Below are positions 10,444-63,409 of a stretch of DNA of 64,000 nucleotides, in pieces (positions within the stretch are counted from its first letter, which is position 1; each line of letters opens with the position of its first letter). This DNA comes from Polyangium mundeleinium (lineage in GTDB: Bacteria; Myxococcota_A; Polyangia; Polyangiales; Polyangiaceae): assembly GCF_028369105.1 (NCBI RefSeq), contig NZ_JAQNDO010000001.1:8960501-9024500 (forward strand). Reading direction: 5' to 3'. The notes under the pieces are model-generated. The model saw nothing but the letters and a program-made list of their open reading frames with translations, was not told the DNA's origin and did no database searches. Position numbers and translations under genes: made by a program.

Positions 10444-12297
10444 ATGCGCACTCTGCTAGCTCTCTTTCTCCTCCCATGTTTCGTGCTCCCCTTCGCTTGC
10501 TCGGCCAGCGGTGATCGCACGTCCACGAGCAGCGGCGGCACCGCCGGGGCCGGCGGCGGCGGCGGCGACGGCTGCGGCCAATGCTTCGGCGCCAACTTCA
10601 CGCCCTGCAATCCCGACGGCACGTCCGGCACGCCGGTCACGTGTCCGAGCGGCGTGTGCGCGCCGAAGGTGGGCTGCGTCGAATGCCAGCCCGGCGCCCT
10701 CACGTGCGTCGGGAACGAGGTCCGCCGCTGCTCCGAGGACGGCCAGACGGCGACGGAGGTCGTCGAGGTCTGCGACGCCGCCGCGGGGTTCGGCTGCTCC
10801 AATGGGGCTTGCACCGGCGCCTGCGACGTCGCCGCGGATCAGCCCTCCAACGTGGGCTGCGAGTTCTGGGCCGTGGATCTCGATCAACAGGACGGCTTGA
10901 ACGATCCGGCGAGCGCGCCCTGGGGCGTCGTCCTTTCGAATACCGGCGAGGCCGTGGCGAAGGTCGTGATCGAGCTGAACGACGCGCCGCTCGGAATGCC
11001 CGCGACGCCGAAGCTCGTGCTCGCGGTCGACGTGCAGCCCGGCGCGCTCTTCACGGCGAAGCTGCCCACGCGCGAGCTCGATTGCGGGGTCAAGCCGAAC
11101 GATTACCTCTCCCCTGGGACGTGTTTGTCCTCGAATGCGTTCCGCATCACCTCGTCCACGCCGATCGTCGTGTATCAGTTCAATGTCTTCGAGAATGCCT
11201 ACTCGAACGACGCGTCGCTCCTCTTGCCCACGCCCGGGCTCGGCAAGATCTACCGCATCATCAACTGGCCCGCCGGGCACCCGATCCCGCTCGATTTCCC
11301 GGGCATCGGGAAGATCATCGATCGCTCGTACGTGACCGTGATCGGCACCAAGCCGAATACCGTGGTCACGGTCAAGCCGAGCTGGCGCATCAGGGGCAAC
11401 CCGCCCATCGCCGCGACGCCGCCCGGCGGCGAGATCAAGGTCACGCTGAATCCCTTCGACGTCTTGAACCTGGAGACCGACGACGCCACGTTCCAGGACG
11501 ACCCCAAGACGGTCGCCGATCTCTCGTCCACGATCGTCACGTCGACGCTTCCGGTCGCGGTCTTTTCGGGCGTCGAGACCACGAGCGCGCCCGGCGGCGT
11601 CCTCGAGGTCCCGACGTACGGCGGCTGGTCGAGCGACAGTACCTGCTGCCTCGATCACCTCGAAGAGCAGATGTTCCCCGTGGAGTCGATCGGCTCGCGG
11701 TACGTGATCACGCGCAGCCCCGTGCGCTCCACGTCGGGCTTTCGCGAGCCCGACGTCATTCGATTCCTCGGCGTCGCCGAGGACGCGACGGTCACGACGA
11801 ACCTGCCCCCGCCCTTCGATTCGTTCGTCCTCAAACCGGGCGAGGTGAAGACGACCTGGGCCCAGGACAATTTCGTGGTCGGCGCGACGAAGCCGGTCAT
11901 GGTGGGGCAGATCCAGGTCTCGAATGGATACGTCGACGGCCCGGCGATCGGCGATCCTTCGCTCACCGTCTTCCCGCCGATCGAGCAGTTCCGCACGGAA
12001 TACGTCATTCCGACACCGCCCTCGTGGACGCAGAACTGGGTGGTGGTCGCGGCCGAGGTCGGCTCGGAGGTCATGCTCGACGGCGCCACGACGAACCTCT
12101 GCCAGATCGAGCCGGCGGGCATGGTCGAGGGCAAGACGTACCATTCCCGCAAATGCTCGTTGCAGCCCGGCGTGCACCGCCTCACCGGGGACAAACCGTT
12201 CGGCATCATTGCGTACGGATACGGGAGCGCGGGATCGTATGCGTTCGCGGGCGGCGCGGACGTGAAGCGCGTGTACGAGCCGCCTCCGCTCAAGTAA
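10444..12297 (+). CDS. IgGFc-binding-like surface lipoprotein
   Basis: The ATG at 10444 opens a lipoprotein signal (MRTLLALFLLPCFVLPFAC). A Ser/Gly linker is followed by a Cys-rich N-terminal part (about residues 45-130; motifs such as CQPGALTCVGNEVRRCSEDG). Residues 150-600 match the layout of the IgGFc-binding N-terminal domain, a beta-rich module: WAVDLDQQDGLNDPASAP, then segments such as VVYQFNVFENAYSNDASLLLP and the closing KPFGIIAYGYGSAGSYAFAGG. Total length is 617 residues. Family members in bacteria are surface proteins of uncertain ligand. A strong hairpin lies 43 bases after the stop. Confidence 0.85.
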   Translation: MRTLLALFLLPCFVLPFACSASGDRTSTSSGGTAGAGGGGGDGCGQCFGANFTPCNPDGTSGTPVTCPSGVCAPKVGCVECQPGALTCVGNEVRRCSEDGQTATEVVEVCDAAAGFGCSNGACTGACDVAADQPSNVGCEFWAVDLDQQDGLNDPASAPWGVVLSNTGEAVAKVVIELNDAPLGMPATPKLVLAVDVQPGALFTAKLPTRELDCGVKPNDYLSPGTCLSSNAFRITSSTPIVVYQFNVFENAYSNDASLLLPTPGLGKIYRIINWPAGHPIPLDFPGIGKIIDRSYVTVIGTKPNTVVTVKPSWRIRGNPPIAATPPGGEIKVTLNPFDVLNLETDDATFQDDPKTVADLSSTIVTSTLPVAVFSGVETTSAPGGVLEVPTYGGWSSDSTCCLDHLEEQMFPVESIGSRYVITRSPVRSTSGFREPDVIRFLGVAEDATVTTNLPPPFDSFVLKPGEVKTTWAQDNFVVGATKPVMVGQIQVSNGYVDGPAIGDPSLTVFPPIEQFRTEYVIPTPPSWTQNWVVVAAEVGSEVMLDGATTNLCQIEPAGMVEGKTYHSRKCSLQPGVHRLTGDKPFGIIAYGYGSAGSYAFAGGADVKRVYEPPPLK

Positions 12298-57507: not shown

Positions 57508-58455
57508 ATGATGGTGACGGAAAAACGCTACTCCTGGCTGCGCCTGCTCCTCAAGTACCGCGGGACGGCGATGCAGCGGATCCGTGGCCGCATGGCCCTC
57601 ACCACGCTGCTCGCCGTCGTGGTGACCGTGATCGACTTGAACGTCCGGTTTTTTCACCCGGACCTCACGACGATCCCGTTCACGCTCATCGGCCTCGCGC
57701 TCAGCATCTTCCTCGGCTTCCGAAACAACACGAGTTACGACCGTTTCTGGGAAGGCCGAAAGCTCTGGGGCGGCCTCGTCAACACGACCCGCACGATCAC
57801 GCGCCAGATCCTCACGCTCGTGAACGCGCCGGCCGAGCGCGCCGACGAGAGCGAGCCTGTCGCGGCGTTCCGCCGGGAGATGGTCTATCGGATCATCGGC
57901 TACACGCATGCGCTCCGGCTGCACCTCCGCGATCAGGATCGGCTGGAGGAGCTCGAGCCCTTCCTCGCGGCGGCCGAGATCGAGGCATTGCGGCCCGAGC
58001 TGAATCGGCCCACGGCGATCCTCCAATCGGCCGCGTTCCGCCTGCGCGACGCCTGGCAGCGCGGCTGGATTCACTCCTACCACCTGCCCGTGCTGGAGCA
58101 GAGCCTCACCGTCCTCACGGACCTCCAGGGCGGCTGCGAGCGCATCAAGAGCACGCCGATCCCGCTCTCGTACACCTCGCTCATTCACCAGCTCGTCGCC
58201 ATTTATTGCTTCGCGCTCCCGTTCGGGATCGTGAAGACGGTCGGGGTGTTCACGCCGGTCGTCGTGGGGATCGTGGCCTATGCGTTCTACGGCCTCGACG
58301 CGATCGGCGACGAGATCGAAAATCCCTTCGGCGTGGACGCGAACGATCTCCCGCTCTCCGGCCTCTCGCGCATGATCGAGGTGAACCTCCGGCAGCGGCT
58401 CGGCGAGACGGATCTGCCGCCCCTGCTCAAGCCGAAGGCCGGCCACCTGACCTGA
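57508..58455 (+). CDS. Bestrophin-like membrane channel (UPF0187 family)
   Basis: The 315-residue membrane protein has the family's signatures: SWLRLLLKYRGTAMQ at the N-terminus, FRNNTSYDRFWEGRKLWGGL near residue 72 and the C-terminal DAIGDEIENPFGVDANDLPL. Four hydrophobic regions are visible. Bacterial homologues form pentameric ion channels in the inner membrane. The ion selectivity cannot be read. Two adjacent ATGs (57508, 57511) are possible starts. Confidence 0.9.
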   Translation: MMVTEKRYSWLRLLLKYRGTAMQRIRGRMALTTLLAVVVTVIDLNVRFFHPDLTTIPFTLIGLALSIFLGFRNNTSYDRFWEGRKLWGGLVNTTRTITRQILTLVNAPAERADESEPVAAFRREMVYRIIGYTHALRLHLRDQDRLEELEPFLAAAEIEALRPELNRPTAILQSAAFRLRDAWQRGWIHSYHLPVLEQSLTVLTDLQGGCERIKSTPIPLSYTSLIHQLVAIYCFALPFGIVKTVGVFTPVVVGIVAYAFYGLDAIGDEIENPFGVDANDLPLSGLSRMIEVNLRQRLGETDLPPLLKPKAGHLT

Positions 58456-58501: not shown

Positions 58502-59878
58502 ATGCCCCCCTCACCCTCCTCCCACCCAGCGGTCGCGAAGTACGCGGAGCACATCAATCCCGCCTTCGTAAAACTCCTCGGCGCCTTCGGCTACGGCCGC
58601 GTGTTCGTCCGCGCGCGTGGGGCGACCTTGTGGGATCACGAGGGGCGCGAATATCTCGATTTCCTCGCGGGCTTCGGCGCGCACAACCTCGGACACAACC
58701 ACCCGAAGCTCCGGGCGCACATGGCCGCGTTCCTCGCGGACGACGTGCCGAACCTGGTGCACGTCGGACCGCCCGTCCACGCGGCCGAGCTCGCGGCCGA
58801 GCTCGCGCGCCGCGCCGGCCCGCTCACGATGTGCCTCTTCTCGTGCACCGGCGCCGAGGCCGTGGAGGCCGCGCTCAAGCTCGCGCGCGCCGCGACCGGG
58901 AAAAAGACGCTCGTGTATTGCAAGAACGGCTATCACGGGCTGAACCTCGGCACGCTGTCGACGTCCGGCATCCCGCGCATGCGTGAGCTCTTCGAGCCGC
59001 TCTTGCCTGCCTGCCAGGAAGTGCCGTTCGGGGATCTCGACGCGCTCGACGAGGCGCTTGGCAAGACCCGCGCCGCCGCATTCCTCGTCGAGCCGATCCA
59101 GGCCGAGGGCGGCATGATCGTGCCTCCGAAGGGGTACCTGCGCGCCGCGCAGGAGCTTTGCCGAAAGCGCGGCGCGCTGCTCATCCTGGACGAGGTGCAG
59201 ACTGGCCTCGGCCGCACCGGCTCGCTCTTCGCTTGCGAGGCCGAAGGGTTTTTCCCGGACGTCCTCGTGCTCGGCAAGGCCCTCGGCGGTGGAATGGTGC
59301 CGATCTCCGCGACGCTCACCACGAAGGACCTGTGCCAGCGCGCGTTTGGCACCGCGGAGCGCTTCGATCTGCACGGCTCGACGTACGCGGGCAATGCCTT
59401 CGCTTGCCGCACGGCCGGGGCGATCCTCGCGATCCTCGACGAGGAGGGGCTCGTCCGCGCGAGCCGGGAGAAAGGCGAGCGGATGCTCCATGCCTTGCGG
59501 GATCGCATTGGCAAGCACCCGCTCGTGCGCGAGGTGCGGGGCCGCGGGCTCTTCGTGGGGATCGAGCTCGGGCCGACCGAAAAAGGCGGGCTCTTGCATC
59601 GGGCCTTGCCGGGCCTCGTGGAAGCGGTCTCGCGCCGCATCTTCGGGCAATGGCTGAGCGTGCGGCTGCTCGAACACGGCATCGTGGCGCAACCCGCGAG
59701 CCAGCAATGGAACGTGCTCAAGCTCGAACCGCCGCTCACGGTGACGGACGCCGAGATCGACCGTGTCGTGGATCGGATCGGCGCGCTCCTCGACGAATAC
59801 CGCGAGGTGGCTCCGATCGTGCGCGACGCGACGGAGCGGCTCGGCAAGCAGTTCGCCGGTGGATGGAGGTTCGGATGA
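58502..59878 (+). CDS. Class III (PLP-dependent) aminotransferase
   Basis: This cytosolic enzyme transfers an amino group to or from a terminal or ketone substrate. The 458-residue product shows FSCTGAEAVEAALKLARAAT (PLP phosphate binding) near residue 117, ILDEVQTGLGRTGSLFACEA near 230, and the Lys in VLGKALGGGMVP near 258 that forms the aldimine. The family includes ornithine, acetylornithine and HpnO-type enzymes; the substrate is not determined here. The stop overlaps the next ATG (ATGA at 59875), so it is translationally coupled to the radical SAM gene. Confidence 0.93.
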   Translation: MPPSPSSHPAVAKYAEHINPAFVKLLGAFGYGRVFVRARGATLWDHEGREYLDFLAGFGAHNLGHNHPKLRAHMAAFLADDVPNLVHVGPPVHAAELAAELARRAGPLTMCLFSCTGAEAVEAALKLARAATGKKTLVYCKNGYHGLNLGTLSTSGIPRMRELFEPLLPACQEVPFGDLDALDEALGKTRAAAFLVEPIQAEGGMIVPPKGYLRAAQELCRKRGALLILDEVQTGLGRTGSLFACEAEGFFPDVLVLGKALGGGMVPISATLTTKDLCQRAFGTAERFDLHGSTYAGNAFACRTAGAILAILDEEGLVRASREKGERMLHALRDRIGKHPLVREVRGRGLFVGIELGPTEKGGLLHRALPGLVEAVSRRIFGQWLSVRLLEHGIVAQPASQQWNVLKLEPPLTVTDAEIDRVVDRIGALLDEYREVAPIVRDATERLGKQFAGGWRFG

Positions 59879-60894
59879 GCTTCGCCACGTGGAAAAAAGA
59901 GGCAGCGTTCACCACGACGCTCCTCCGCAGGCGACCTTTTTCGTGCCTGATCCAGGTCACGAACCGCTGCAACATGGAATGCAGCTTCTGCGATTTCTGG
60001 CCGAACCCCGCGCCGCCCAAGCAAGAACTCTCGCTCGCCGACTACCGCCGCGTCGCGGACGAGCTCGCGGCGCTCGGTACGTTCGTGATTTCAGTCGAGG
60101 GCGGCGAGCCGCTCGCGCGGCCGGACATCGTGGAGATCGTGCGGATCCTGTCGGAGAAACACATCACCGCGCTGTTCACGAACGGCTGGTTCGTGACGGA
60201 GGACAAGGCGAAGGCGCTCTGGGACGCGGGGCTCGTGCACGGCAACGTGTCCATCGATTACCCCGAGGCGAGCCGGCACGACGGGAAACGCAGGCTCGCG
60301 GGGACCACGGATCGCGCCTGGAAGGCGGTCGACATCCTGCGCGACACGGCGCCGCGCGGGGGCAAACAGGTGCACGTGATGACGGTGCTGATGGAGGACA
60401 ACTGGCGCGACCTGGAAGGCTTGCTCCGGCAAAGCGACGCACGCGGGGTCGGCCATCAGCTCACGCTCCTCAGCATTGCGGGTTATCGCCGCGGCAAGGA
60501 GGGCCCCGACAAGATGCCGCCCGTGGGCGTATCCGAGCACGTGCTCGCGTTATGGGAGCGGTATCCGCACCTCCGGTACTTCCGCGATTATTTCGCGCGT
60601 ATCGACGCCTTCCTCGCGCAGGGTGAGATGCCCACGTGCAGCGCGGGCAAGACGGGGTTCAACATCGATCACGTGGGCAACGTCTCGCCCTGCATCGAGC
60701 GGATCCACGAGAGCGTGGGCAACGTGCGCGACGCGAACCTCGGCGAGCTTTATCGGCGTCTGCAAGAGAAGCAGGCCGAGATCGCGCGATGCCAGCAATG
60801 CTGGACCGCGTGCCGGGGCATCAACCAGGCGCTCGGCCATGGCGGATCGGCGCGAAGCCTCTTCGATCTCGGCACTAGGATGCGGACGAGCTGA
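59875..60894 (+). CDS. Radical SAM protein with SPASM-like C-terminus
   Basis: The enzyme uses a 4Fe-4S cluster and SAM to make a radical. The 339-residue product has the cluster motif in TNRCNMECSFCDFW near residue 32 (CxxxCxxC), the glycine-rich VEGGEPL near 76 and the C-terminal Cys set (CSAGKTGFNIDHVGNVSPC near 258; CQQCWTAC near 309) that looks like a short SPASM-type auxiliary cluster. It is coupled to the aminotransferase gene. Such pairs can modify lipids, peptides or sugars. A link to lipid chemistry is suggested only by the hydroxylase next door. The gene ends within the 3' end of the desaturase-like gene on the other strand (20-base overlap). Confidence 0.9.
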   Translation: MSFATWKKEAAFTTTLLRRRPFSCLIQVTNRCNMECSFCDFWPNPAPPKQELSLADYRRVADELAALGTFVISVEGGEPLARPDIVEIVRILSEKHITALFTNGWFVTEDKAKALWDAGLVHGNVSIDYPEASRHDGKRRLAGTTDRAWKAVDILRDTAPRGGKQVHVMTVLMEDNWRDLEGLLRQSDARGVGHQLTLLSIAGYRRGKEGPDKMPPVGVSEHVLALWERYPHLRYFRDYFARIDAFLAQGEMPTCSAGKTGFNIDHVGNVSPCIERIHESVGNVRDANLGELYRRLQEKQAEIARCQQCWTACRGINQALGHGGSARSLFDLGTRMRTS

Positions 60895-62005
60895 ACGCGA
60901 TGGCGAGGCCGAGCGCGGCCGTCGCGGCGACACGCACACCCTCCCGCTTGGCTGCGCCGTCGCGCCCGTCGAGCAGCCCTCCAATCGTGGACAACCCCCA
61001 CAGGACGACGAGCGCCCCGGCCGCGAGCTGCCAGAAAGGATGCCGCTCGCGCAGCCAGAGCAGGTGCAGCGCGAACGCGAGCGTCGCGGCGAACGCGAGC
61101 GCGGCATAGACCTTCGTGCGCGTGGGAATGTCCGCGTCGGGCCGCGCGGGCGCGTGGCGCGGGAACCCGATCCCCGCGGGGGTCCAGCCGGGGTGGCGGA
61201 CGAAGGTCCGGACCTTGTCGCCGAACGTCCTCGCCTGCCGGGCGACGGCGACGAGATCGCGAAAAAACACCCATTGCGCCCGCGCGCCGTCGTGCGTCTG
61301 GTAGCCGAACGGCGTTCCGAGGACCGGCGGATCGGCCGGATCGACCTCCACGTGCGTACCGAACATCCGGTCCCACACCGTGAACATCGCGCCGAAGTTC
61401 TTGTTCAGATACCGCCGGTTTTTCGAATGATGCACGATGTGCGTCGCCGGCGTGACCAAAAACCAGAGGCCCGGCCGGTGGAAGACGCGGGAATGGACGG
61501 TGAGCGCGTAAAACGAGATGATCGAGATCGCCACGAAGAAATGCAGCGGCGGGACGCCGAGCATGGGGATCGGCGCGTAGAAAAGGAACGCGTAGGTGTC
61601 GGAGAACCAGGGGTGACGCGTGGCGACCGAGACGTTGAAATGCTCGGACTGGTGGTGGACGCCGTGAATGGCCCAGAACGCGGCCACGGAATGGCCGGCG
61701 CGGTGGTACCAGTAATACCCGAGGTCGCCGAGCGCGAACGCGAGGATCCAGGGGACGATCGAGCCCTCGGGCCAGCGCACGAGGGCGAGCTTGTCGTGAG
61801 CAAAATCGTAGAGGCCGAGCAGCAGGGGGCCGAGGAAGAGGCCGAGGACGATCTCGCCGAGCCCCGCCGAGAAGCTCCCGAGCGTGTCGGCGAACCCGTA
61901 GACGTGTTTTCCCTTCCGCCGCGAAAGCGCGATCTCCAGGGCGACGATGGCGAGGTAGAAGGGGACCCCGAGCGCGTAGTACCCATTCGTCTCGAGGCGG
62001 CCCAT
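60875..62005 (-). CDS. Fatty acid hydroxylase / sterol desaturase superfamily membrane enzyme
   Basis: This di-iron membrane oxygenase has 376 residues and several transmembrane helices. The His boxes are present: WYHRAGH near residue 97, HGVHHQSEHFN near 113 and HIVHHSKN near 188. The order resembles alkylglycerol monooxygenase/TMEM195-type proteins, with extra C-terminal hydrophobic segments. It probably hydroxylates a lipid. The ATG at 62005 is divergent from the P450 gene. Confidence 0.9.
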   Translation of the reverse strand: MGRLETNGYYALGVPFYLAIVALEIALSRRKGKHVYGFADTLGSFSAGLGEIVLGLFLGPLLLGLYDFAHDKLALVRWPEGSIVPWILAFALGDLGYYWYHRAGHSVAAFWAIHGVHHQSEHFNVSVATRHPWFSDTYAFLFYAPIPMLGVPPLHFFVAISIISFYALTVHSRVFHRPGLWFLVTPATHIVHHSKNRRYLNKNFGAMFTVWDRMFGTHVEVDPADPPVLGTPFGYQTHDGARAQWVFFRDLVAVARQARTFGDKVRTFVRHPGWTPAGIGFPRHAPARPDADIPTRTKVYAALAFAATLAFALHLLWLRERHPFWQLAAGALVVLWGLSTIGGLLDGRDGAAKREGVRVAATAALGLAIAFSSSAS

Positions 62006-62203: not shown

Positions 62204-63409
62204 ATGCACCCCTTGTTCACCCTGGAGGGCCGCAAGGACCCTCACCCCATCTACAAGCGCCTCCGGGCCGAAGAGCCCGCCGTGCAGATCCTCGAGCCTT
62301 ATCGCAAGACGCCGTTCTGGCTGCTCACGCGGTACGCCGATTGCTCCGACATGCTGCGGGATCCGCGCTTCGGCAAGGATTTCACGAAATGGTCCGCCGA
62401 AGAGCGGGCGCGCATGCACGTGTCGAGCGAATTCGATGCCCTCGGCAAGCACATGCTGGGCGCAGATCCGCCGGACCATACACGGCTGCGATCCATCGTG
62501 GCCAAGGCCTTCACGCCGCAGATCGTCGAGGGCCTCCGGAGCCGCATCTCCGCGATCGCGGAGAACCTCGTCTCGGCCGCGGTCGCGCGGGATTCGAGCG
62601 GGATGGACCTCGTCTCCCAGTTCTCGTATCCCCTGCCCGTCACGGTCATCGCCGAGCTGCTCGGCGTGCCGGCCTCGGATCAGGACGATTTTCGGCGCTG
62701 GACGACGACGCTCTTCACGCCCGCGGACACCGACGAGCAGCTCGCGCACCTGCGCGCCACCGGCTTCGAATTCTTCCAGTACTTCATGGCGCTCATCGAG
62801 CGCCGGCGGGCCGAGCCGAGGGACGATCTCGTGAGCGGGCTGGTGGCGGCCGAGGAAGGCGGCGATCGGCTGAGCACGCAGGAGCTCGTGGGCATGCTCT
62901 TCCTCCTGCTCGTCGCAGGCCACGAGACCACGGTCAATCTCATCACGAACGGCATGCTCGCGCTGATGGATCACCCCGAGGAGCGCGAGCGCCTCGTCGC
63001 CGATCCCTCGCTCCTCGAATCGGCCGTGGAGGAGATGCTGCGGTATTGCGGGCCGGTGGAGACGACGACGTACCGCTTCGCGCTGGAGGACGTGGAGATC
63101 GGCGGGGTGACGATCCGGAAAAACGAGCTCGTCCTGGCATCGCTGCTCTCGGCCGATCACGACGAATCACGATTCCCGGACGCGGACCGCTTCGACGTGG
63201 GGCGAAAGCCGAACAAGCACATCGCCTTCGGCTACGGGATCCATTTCTGCCTGGGTGCGCCGCTCGCGCGCCTGGAGGCGGTGATCGCCGTGGAGACGCT
63301 GCTCCGGCGCCTGCCGCGGATGAAATTGGCCGTGCCGCGCGAGGACCTCGAGCCGAGCTCGATGCTGCTCCTCCTGCACGCGAAGAAGCGATTGCCCATC
63401 CAGTTTTAG
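62204..63409 (+). CDS. Cytochrome P450
   Basis: This haem monooxygenase is about 401 residues if started at the ATG at 62204, which matches the usual family length and begins MHPLFTLEGRKDPHPIYKRL. In-frame ATGs at 62090 and 62054 would add 38 or 50 residues without family resemblance, and no start has a clear ribosome binding site. Signatures: I-helix LLLVAGHETT, the E-x-x-R of VEEMLRY, and the haem Cys in FGYGIHFCLGAPLARLE. Bacterial P450s of this type use ferredoxin partners, and none is adjacent. The substrate is unknown. It lies next to the hydroxylase gene, so both may act on lipid or a natural product. Confidence 0.95.
   Translation: MHPLFTLEGRKDPHPIYKRLRAEEPAVQILEPYRKTPFWLLTRYADCSDMLRDPRFGKDFTKWSAEERARMHVSSEFDALGKHMLGADPPDHTRLRSIVAKAFTPQIVEGLRSRISAIAENLVSAAVARDSSGMDLVSQFSYPLPVTVIAELLGVPASDQDDFRRWTTTLFTPADTDEQLAHLRATGFEFFQYFMALIERRRAEPRDDLVSGLVAAEEGGDRLSTQELVGMLFLLLVAGHETTVNLITNGMLALMDHPEERERLVADPSLLESAVEEMLRYCGPVETTTYRFALEDVEIGGVTIRKNELVLASLLSADHDESRFPDADRFDVGRKPNKHIAFGYGIHFCLGAPLARLEAVIAVETLLRRLPRMKLAVPREDLEPSSMLLLLHAKKRLPIQF

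What the first reader, a model, noticed from the sequence alone, without database searches (positions are those of the whole stretch)
58502..60894. Coupled class III aminotransferase and radical SAM enzyme beside lipid-type oxygenases
The ATGA overlap fixes a 1:1 link between an amino-group transfer enzyme and a radical SAM/SPASM-like protein. Neighbours are a fatty acid hydroxylase-like protein and a P450. Aminated hopanoids use a class III aminotransferase and a radical SAM enzyme, but this radical SAM sequence does not look like HpnH and no cyclase is present. It could be a different lipid or small-molecule pathway.
Basis: inference. Interest (0 to 1): 0.5.

Follow-up and report, generated by a model that had tools for sequence, protein, structure and literature searches.

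The report
Amine-and-radical module of lipid pathway
Two coupled genes in a soil myxobacterium, an amine-adding enzyme and a radical enzyme, appear to belong to a bacterial pathway, not found described in the papers searched, that pairs its own fatty-acid assembly line with relatives of the archaeal enzyme that welds lipid tails together, so they probably help make an unusual amine-bearing lipid.

Summary
A class III aminotransferase (AT, 58502-59878) overlaps a radical SAM/SPASM gene (rSAM, 59875-60894) by ATGA. The pair is not a Polyangium oddity. The rSAM occurs in 16 non-Polyangium genomes: AT adjacent in 12, in the same locus in 2, not assessable at a contig edge in 2. In 11 of 16 it sits with some or all of a recurrent set: homologues of archaeal tetraether synthase Tes, SDR reductases, FabZ-type dehydratase, ketosynthase and ketosynthase-beta, nitroreductase, acyl carrier protein. 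All 13 of 377 Myxococcota genomes with the rSAM are among the 42 with Tes-like genes. The window's genome keeps such genes 1.3 and 5.8 Mb away; in genome G098, 16 of 18 have counterparts in one stretch of about 30 kb that also holds the pair. The hopanoid parallel fails: no HpnH or hopene cyclase above cut-off. Best reading: AT and rSAM tailor a dedicated acyl product of a Tes/FAS-II pathway into an amino-lipid. The association is well supported; substrate, order of steps and product are inferred. Eight literature searches found no paper describing the cluster.

The parts
58502..59878 (+). Class III (PLP) aminotransferase, closest named relative PigE, 458 aa
   Evidence: Pfam PF00202 301 bits; best NCBIfam match PigE 442 bits, below its cut-off of 850; best PDB match 4ppm, E 9e-97
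59276..59278 (+). Codon of PLP lysine K259
   Evidence: invariant in alignment A3, 9 rows; Q at this column in the shortened L017 copy
59875..60894 (+). Radical SAM/SPASM-like enzyme, 339 aa; overlaps the AT stop by ATGA
   Evidence: Pfam PF04055 82 bits, PF13186 25 bits; model mean pLDDT 83, best VIA-align match BlsE (Z 23.7, rmsd 3.4, 293 aligned)
59968..59991 (+). CX3CX2C motif (C32, C36, C39) for the SAM-binding [4Fe-4S] cluster
   Evidence: invariant in 18 of 18 aligned rSAMs
60637..60813 (+). C-terminal auxiliary-cluster region: C255, C273, C306, C309, C313
   Evidence: all five Cys invariant in 18 of 18 aligned rSAMs
60875..62005 (-). Fatty-acid-hydroxylase superfamily protein (FAH), convergent with the rSAM; membership of the pathway possible, not shown
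   Evidence: Pfam PF04116 92 bits; FA_hydroxylase genes in 6 of 37 mapped non-Polyangium regions, but the closest homologues (48-64%) lie on other contigs than the pair
62204..63409 (+). Cytochrome P450 (start approximate); link to the pair not supported
   Evidence: Pfam PF00067 118 bits; among 75 loci held, found only in Polyangium loci
57508..58455 (+). Bestrophin-like channel, 46 bases upstream of the AT; probably incidental
   Evidence: Pfam PF25539 331 bits; in the gene maps seen only in Polyangium

Best explanation
The pair is the amine-forming and radical-tailoring module of a lipid pathway that in other Myxococcota and one Rokubacteria MAG is encoded together. Proposed working: (1) ACP, ketosynthase/ketosynthase-beta, ketoreductase and FabZ-type dehydratase build a dedicated acyl chain (inferred from enzyme families). 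(2) Tes-like radical SAM enzymes, encoded singly or in tandem and usually followed by an SDR gene, activate C-H bonds of the chain and form C-C bonds (inferred from homology to archaeal Tes and its conserved metal motifs). (3) An SDR adjusts a hydroxyl or carbonyl, and the aminotransferase replaces a carbonyl by an amine (family chemistry; substrate inferred). (4) The window's SPASM-like radical SAM makes one further radical change before or after the amine step, for example a dehydrogenation, epimerisation or decarboxylation as in its structural neighbours (inferred, weakest step). Product: an amine-bearing, possibly double-length or cyclised lipid. In Polyangium the pathway would be split between the window locus and loci 1.3 and 5.8 Mb away.
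For: Recurrent neighbours: 11 of 16 non-Polyangium genomes with the rSAM have Tes-like and/or FAS-II-like genes in the same locus; with an assumed 2% chance per locus, P(10 or more of 16) is 7e-14. The whole set lies on one strand in L049 and L019. Phylogenetic profile: all 13 genomes with the rSAM (two of them with distant copies, 36-39%) are among 42 of 377 with Tes-like genes, Fisher p 6e-14; by genus 9 of 9 among 30 of 234, p 3e-9. A ~29-kb stretch of G098 holds counterparts of 16 of 18 dispersed parts of the window's genome: Tes 77%, 72% and 46%, KR1 72%, 74% and 62%, DH 70%, KS 69% and 64%, KSb 50%, KR2 67%, nitroreductase 69%, ACP 66%, SDRs 53% and 37%, AT paralogue 55% (three G098 genes each serve two of these), with AT and rSAM at 53-54%. 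In L024 (G072) AT, rSAM, SDR-Tes and DH-KS lie within about 8 kb. The Tes-like protein of L019 matches M. jannaschii Tes (7tol) at E 2e-64 with the metal motifs. AT and rSAM distances correlate.
Against: Core clusters exist without the pair (L060; L066, whose genome has the pair on another contig), so the pair is optional; 29 of 42 genomes with Tes-like genes lack the rSAM at the threshold used. In 5 of 16 genomes no Tes or FAS gene is in the stretch read: two are short contigs, but L048 and L051 were read over 19-20 kb and L017 over 8.4 kb. In the window's genome the parts are megabases apart, so function in trans is an inference; 2 of 18 parts (a KS-like and a membrane protein) have no counterpart in the G098 stretch; one of its three strong Tes-like genes is truncated. 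The Tes-like proteins scanned score 189-267 bits, below the Tes cut-off of 450. More distant rSAMs (36-39%) occur in loci with Tes/FAS clusters but no AT in view (G008, G064), so AT and rSAM are not inseparable. No product is known.
Confidence: 0.6

Rival explanations
1. Beta-amino-acyl route: the aminotransferase acts on a beta-ketoacyl-ACP made by the ketosynthase, giving a beta-amino fatty acyl unit, and Tes-like enzymes act later or on another part.
For: AT is genetically tied to KS, DH and ACP. Class III aminotransferases acting on beta-ketoacyl thioesters are known (mycosubtilin AMT domain, recalled). Weak NCBIfam matches of DH, KS and, in L019, ACP to cispentacin AmcE/AmcF/AmcB.
Against: Those matches are below cut-off and weaker than FabZ, FabF and general ACP models. 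Some loci pair an AT with Tes and SDRs without KS genes in view (L026, L045, L071).
Confidence: 0.2
2. Adenosyl-transfer route like aminobacteriohopanetriol: the rSAM adds the 5'-deoxyadenosyl group to a lipid alkene, and after removal of adenine the AT aminates the ribose aldehyde, on a non-hopanoid chain.
For: Same enzyme classes as HpnH and HpnO (recalled); lipid context.
Against: The rSAM is not HpnH: 39 of 225 bits. It has five invariant C-terminal Cys and a SPASM match. No purine-removing enzyme appeared among the L019 cluster proteins scanned; other loci were not scanned gene by gene.
Confidence: 0.07
3. Unlinked small-molecule pair: AT and rSAM make a soluble amino compound and merely sit near lipid clusters in some genomes.
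For: Lone pair in the window; 5 of 16 loci without Tes/FAS genes in view. Solved folds matching the rSAM model include BlsE, BtrN, DesII and AbmM, enzymes of soluble natural products (recalled).
Against: 13 of 13 co-occurrence with Tes-like genes and 11 of 16 co-location.
Confidence: 0.13

Closest known systems
Archaeal tetraether synthase Tes / GDGT-MAS (MJ0619)
   Same: The Tes-like neighbours share the rubredoxin-like, N-cluster, SAM-cluster and mostly the C-terminal motifs; L019 copy E 2e-64 to 7tol
   Different: Scores below the Tes equivalog cut-off; two to four copies in each of the 13 rSAM genomes; sit with FAS-II genes, SDRs and aminotransferases; no glycerol-ether enzyme among the L019 cluster proteins scanned
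Anammox / Desulfotalea FAS-II plus radical SAM clusters (ladderane candidates, PMC2649909)
   Same: Dedicated FAS-II set with divergent KS paralogues and radical SAM enzymes (abstract and passages)
   Different: Aminotransferase and nitroreductase have 0 occurrences in that text; its phytoene-desaturase-like genes and SAM methyltransferases were not among the L019 cluster proteins scanned here; sequences not compared
HpnH/HpnO aminohopanoid pathway
   Same: Radical SAM plus class III aminotransferase on a lipid (recalled)
   Different: rSAM is not HpnH, no hopene cyclase above cut-off, different neighbours
PigE aminotransferase (prodigiosin)
   Same: Closest named relative of the AT: 442 bits; 4ppm E 9e-97
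   Different: PigE's model has 837 positions; this AT is a stand-alone 458 aa protein and 408 bits below the PigE cut-off
BlsE cytosylglucuronate decarboxylase
   Same: Best VIA-align match of the rSAM model, Z 23.7, rmsd 3.4, 293 aligned; third by Foldseek E-value
   Different: 18% identity; BlsE NCBIfam score 47 of 400 bits

Membership tests
Class III aminotransferase (Pfam PF00202) | Profile match above gathering score and PLP lysine | tested here: met
   301 vs 30.5 bits; K259 invariant in A3
PigE equivalog | NCBIfam NF053554 score of 850 or more | tested here: not met
   441.7 bits
Radical SAM / SPASM | CX3CX2C plus C-terminal auxiliary-cluster cysteines | tested here: met
   PF04055 82 bits, PF13186 25.4 vs 21.5 bits; 3+5 invariant Cys in 18 of 18; five, not the seven Cys of the classical SPASM motif (seven is recalled)
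HpnH | TIGR03470 score of 225 or more | tested here: not met
   39 bits for the window gene; 0 genes in the genome over cut-off
Hopanoid pathway | Squalene-hopene cyclase (TIGR01507 score of 431 or more) | tested here: not met
   one cyclase at C1:9165457, 264 bits, below cut-off; genome 97.5% complete
BlsE decarboxylase | TIGR04466 score of 400 or more | tested here: not met
   46.9 bits
Tes (neighbouring Tes-like proteins, not the window gene) | NF045702 score of 450 or more | tested here: not met
   265 bits for L019, 189 for L030, 267 for one copy of the window's genome; three proteins scanned
Tes (neighbouring Tes-like proteins, not the window gene) | Metal-binding motifs of GDGT-MAS: rubredoxin CX2C..CX2H, CX3CX2CX2H, CX3CX2C, C-terminal Met/Cys region | tested here: met
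   loose patterns over 48 distinct Tes-like proteins longer than 400 aa: first three in 48 of 48, both C-terminal patterns in 40 of 48; the 8 misses include the truncated copy of the window's genome; motifs taken from passages of PMC9433317
Tes activity | C(sp3)-C(sp3) coupling of lipid tails | not testable with these tools
   needs enzymology or lipidomics; bacterial Tes homologues reported as unconfirmed (passages of PMC11868695)
Ladderane-type FAS-II clusters | Orthology to Kuenenia/Desulfotalea cluster genes | not tested
   no named anammox or Desulfotalea genome was searched

The most novel reading that the evidence does not exclude
This is the first recognised full gene set for bacterial Tes homologues outside tetraether lipids: a private type II fatty-acid/polyketide line feeds two or three Tes-type radical enzymes that join or cyclise the chains, and the window's aminotransferase-radical SAM pair puts an amine on the result, giving a bipolar or carbocyclic amino-lipid of a class not yet described.
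Probability: 0.3. Interest if true: 0.85.

Novelty: new variant of a known kind. Interest (0 to 1): 0.62.

Why it matters
What bacterial homologues of tetraether synthase do is an open question; suggestions in the passages I read (branched GDGTs, PMC8941075 and PMC11868695) rest on homology and are called unconfirmed. This gene set ties such homologues to a dedicated FAS-II line and to aminotransferases, which predicts an amine-containing product rather than a plain tetraether. It also points to testable organisms: Polyangium fumosum has a culture-collection strain. If right, it adds a new class of bacterial lipid and cautions against reading Tes homologues in metagenomes as evidence of GDGT producers.

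Tried and rejected
Rejected: hopanoid origin. FAH and P450 as defining neighbours: the P450 was found only in Polyangium loci among 75 held, the AT-rSAM-FAH arrangement only there, and the closest FAH homologues (48-64%) are on other contigs than the pair. 'MEM9', an apparent conserved neighbour, proved to be an antisense shadow of the AT frame and was dropped. PigE, BlsE and mycofactocin-maturase membership: all far below cut-off.

Led nowhere: the small membrane protein often found before the AT (MEM4) has no Pfam or NCBIfam match. Literature searches for the combination listed no paper that names a Tes + FAS-II + aminotransferase + radical SAM cluster; I saw listings and starts of abstracts only, except for the four papers below, and only open-licence PMC papers are held. 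The P450 was scanned or compared in wrong frames, then in the right one.

Limits: gene maps outside the window are my own ORF calls, so start codons and small genes are uncertain. The genome search scored few candidates per genome (up to 5, 4, 14), so prevalences are lower bounds; I take the 377 genomes to be the same draw. That the five search for related loci genomes differ from the G genomes rests on contig lengths. In one search the shortened L017 AT (326 aa, Q at the lysine column) and the distant G014 and G032 pairs were kept in the correlation; L023 was left out (91-aa AT fragment) and L014 had no AT. Distant rSAMs (35-41%; G008, G014, G032, G064, G240) are outside the count of 16. In one search the FAH count is partly circular, as four of its five queries came from mapped loci. 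The 2% chance rate is my estimate (about 4 Tes-like genes per 8 Mb, 20 kb either side). That the FAS-like block of the window's genome has two KS with an active-site Cys and two KS-like proteins without it is my reading of the sequences.

Papers: PMC2649909 (abstract and passages); passages only of PMC11868695, PMC8941075 and PMC9433317. Recalled from memory: HpnO and aminobacteriohopanetriol chemistry, mycosubtilin AMT, reactions of PigE, BlsE, BtrN, DesII and AbmM, the seven-Cys SPASM motif.
Full report
What is there. The window (C1:8960501-9024500 of a 13.25-Mb genome in 2 contigs, 97.5% complete) carries AT at 58502-59878 and rSAM at 59875-60894, overlapping by ATGA. Four Polyangium records are 93-96% identical at the rSAM, so the genome is Polyangium or very close. 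AT is a class III aminotransferase (PF00202, 301 bits) whose closest named relative is PigE, far below that family's cut-off. rSAM has PF04055 (82 bits) and SPASM (25 bits) matches, three SAM-cluster cysteines and five C-terminal cysteines, all invariant in 18 of 18 aligned homologues. An AlphaFold2 model (11 sequences, mean pLDDT 83, though residues 38-41 by the SAM motif are below 50) matches BlsE best by VIA-align and SkfB, PqqE and BlsE best by Foldseek; a shared fold shows no function.

Spread of the pair. At E <= 1e-30, 9 of 144 genomes of the class, the window's own included, have the rSAM; at E <= 1e-40, 13 of 377 of the phylum, four of them Polyangium. A scan of genome contigs gave 13 loci: 4 Polyangium, 6 full-length relatives at 54-61%, one fragment (L020), and 2 distant Pelagibacteraceae matches that I dropped. 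L015 and L016 lie on contigs of the same length as the G341 and G423 contigs and are counted once. This leaves 16 non-Polyangium genomes with rSAM identity of 45% or more: L014, L017, L018 (Candidatus Rokuibacteriota), L019, L020, and G072, G073, G086, G098, G197, G271, G308, G341, G386, G399, G423. AT lies directly upstream on the same strand in 12. In G073 and G386 an AT is in the same locus but not adjacent. In L014 and L020 the contig ends.

Recurrent neighbours. ORF maps show a recurrent order, with the whole set in L049 (G308, same family as the window genome) and L019: TesA-like, TesB-like, KR1, KR1', MEM4, AT, rSAM, DH, KSb, KS, KR2, nitroreductase, ACP (in L049 MEM4 comes before the Tes genes; in L019 the first Tes gene is cut by the locus edge). 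Family scans of the L019 proteins give FabG-like reductases, a FabZ-like dehydratase, a FabF-like ketosynthase, a protein matching only the N-terminal ketoacyl-synthase domain, a nitroreductase and an ACP. The L019 Tes-like protein matches M. jannaschii Tes (7tol) at E 1.8e-64, and in NCBIfam Tes (265 of 450 bits) and TrsS (281 of 490 bits). Of 48 distinct Tes-like proteins, all have the first three metal motifs described for GDGT-MAS and 40 also both C-terminal patterns (loose patterns). A second module, Tes-like, KR1, AT paralogue and KR1' in this or a similar order, occurs in L045 (own genome), L071, L052+, L063 and L064. Eleven of the 16 genomes have Tes-like and/or FAS-like genes in the locus with the rSAM: L014, L018, L019, L020, G072, G073, G098, G197, G308, G341, G399. 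The other five are L017 (8.4 kb read), G086 and G423 (short contigs, MEM4 only), G271 and G386 (19-20 kb read, MEM4 only). G086, G271, G386 and G423 have Tes-like genes on other contigs.

Co-occurrence. Tes-like genes (E <= 1e-70) are in 42 of 377 genomes; all 13 rSAM genomes are among them (Fisher p 6e-14; by genus 9 of 9 among 30 of 234, p 3e-9). Two of the 13 (G008, G240) have distant rSAMs at 36-39%. The converse fails: 29 genomes have Tes-like genes without the rSAM at that threshold, and L060 and L066 show the core cluster without the pair inserted. The pair is thus an accessory of a subset of these pathways.

The window's own genome. Related genes are at C1:3258179-3267322 (nitroreductase, KR2, two KS, two KS-like proteins, DH; facing a Tes-like gene and KR1), C1:3242782-3246342 (SDR, truncated Tes-like gene, partial KR1, ACP) and C1:10290905-10295160 (Tes-like, KR1, AT paralogue at 35%, SDR). 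No further cluster family was found inside the 64-kb window. The most telling comparison is G098: within about 29 kb of one contig it has counterparts of 16 of 18 such proteins at 37-77% identity, and AT and rSAM at 53-54% directly after a Tes-KR1 couple. One KS-like protein and one membrane protein have no counterpart there, and three G098 genes each serve as counterpart to two. MEM4 was not seen in the stretches of the window's genome that I read. So the window pair most likely works in trans with loci 1.3 and 5.8 Mb away; this is an inference from other genomes.

Mechanism. Shown: gene content, co-location, co-occurrence, conservation of catalytic residues. Inferred: FAS-II-type chain building by KS/KS-beta, reductases, dehydratase and ACP; C-H activation and C-C bond formation by Tes-like enzymes; carbonyl adjustment by SDRs; amination by AT; a further radical step by the rSAM. 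The order of AT and rSAM, and the substrate, are not determined. A beta-ketoacyl-ACP substrate for AT and an adenosyl-transfer role for rSAM are kept as rivals.

FAH and P450. FA_hydroxylase-domain genes occur in 6 of 37 mapped non-Polyangium regions (623 kb in all), including one between AT and rSAM in L051 and two beside the FAS/Tes block of L056. The closest homologues of the window FAH (48-64%, in G386, G341, G423 and G271) lie on other contigs than the pair. A role is possible, not shown. The P450 was found only in Polyangium loci, and no support was found for it or for the bestrophin.

Known or new. Passages of PMC8941075 and PMC11868695 say that bacterial Tes homologues may make branched GDGTs and that this is unconfirmed. 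PMC2649909 (abstract and passages) describes FAS-II plus radical SAM clusters in anammox bacteria and Desulfotalea; aminotransferase and nitroreductase do not occur in its text. None of the eight searches listed a paper describing the combination; most subscription journals and all bioRxiv preprints are outside the library.

Verdict. The pair is a conserved accessory of a Tes/FAS-II pathway with an unknown, probably amine-bearing product.

Noticed in passing
L042:10043-11906 (G000 C1:3244043-3245906): In the window's genome one Tes-like gene stops early (covers residues 26-448 of its 502-aa G098 counterpart) and is followed at once by a KR1 without its first 60 residues, as after a deletion; Tes-like genes at the like place in G395, G454 and G455 match further (to residue 493-494 of the query against 462).
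   Followed up: partly
G000:C1:9165457-9167415: A cyclase at 264 bits to the hopene cyclase model (cut-off 431), perhaps an oxidosqualene cyclase of sterol synthesis.
   Followed up: no
L017:5004-5981: The AT next to a 54%-identical rSAM is shortened (326 aa, 37% identity) with Q at the PLP-lysine column; it may be degenerate or mis-called.
   Followed up: no
L027/L028 (G032, G014): More distant rSAM (40-41%) convergent with an AT (42-43%), in G032 with a Tes/FAS cluster about 11 kb away: a possible older form of the pairing.
   Followed up: partly
L056:41-919 and 11106-12185: Two FA_hydroxylase-type proteins, 40-42% identical to the window FAH, flank a FAS/Tes block in G086.
   Followed up: partly
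L042:7634-8782 and L052:7046-8134: A membrane-like protein without Pfam match, 40% identical between the window genome's Tes/SDR locus and the G399 cluster.
   Followed up: no
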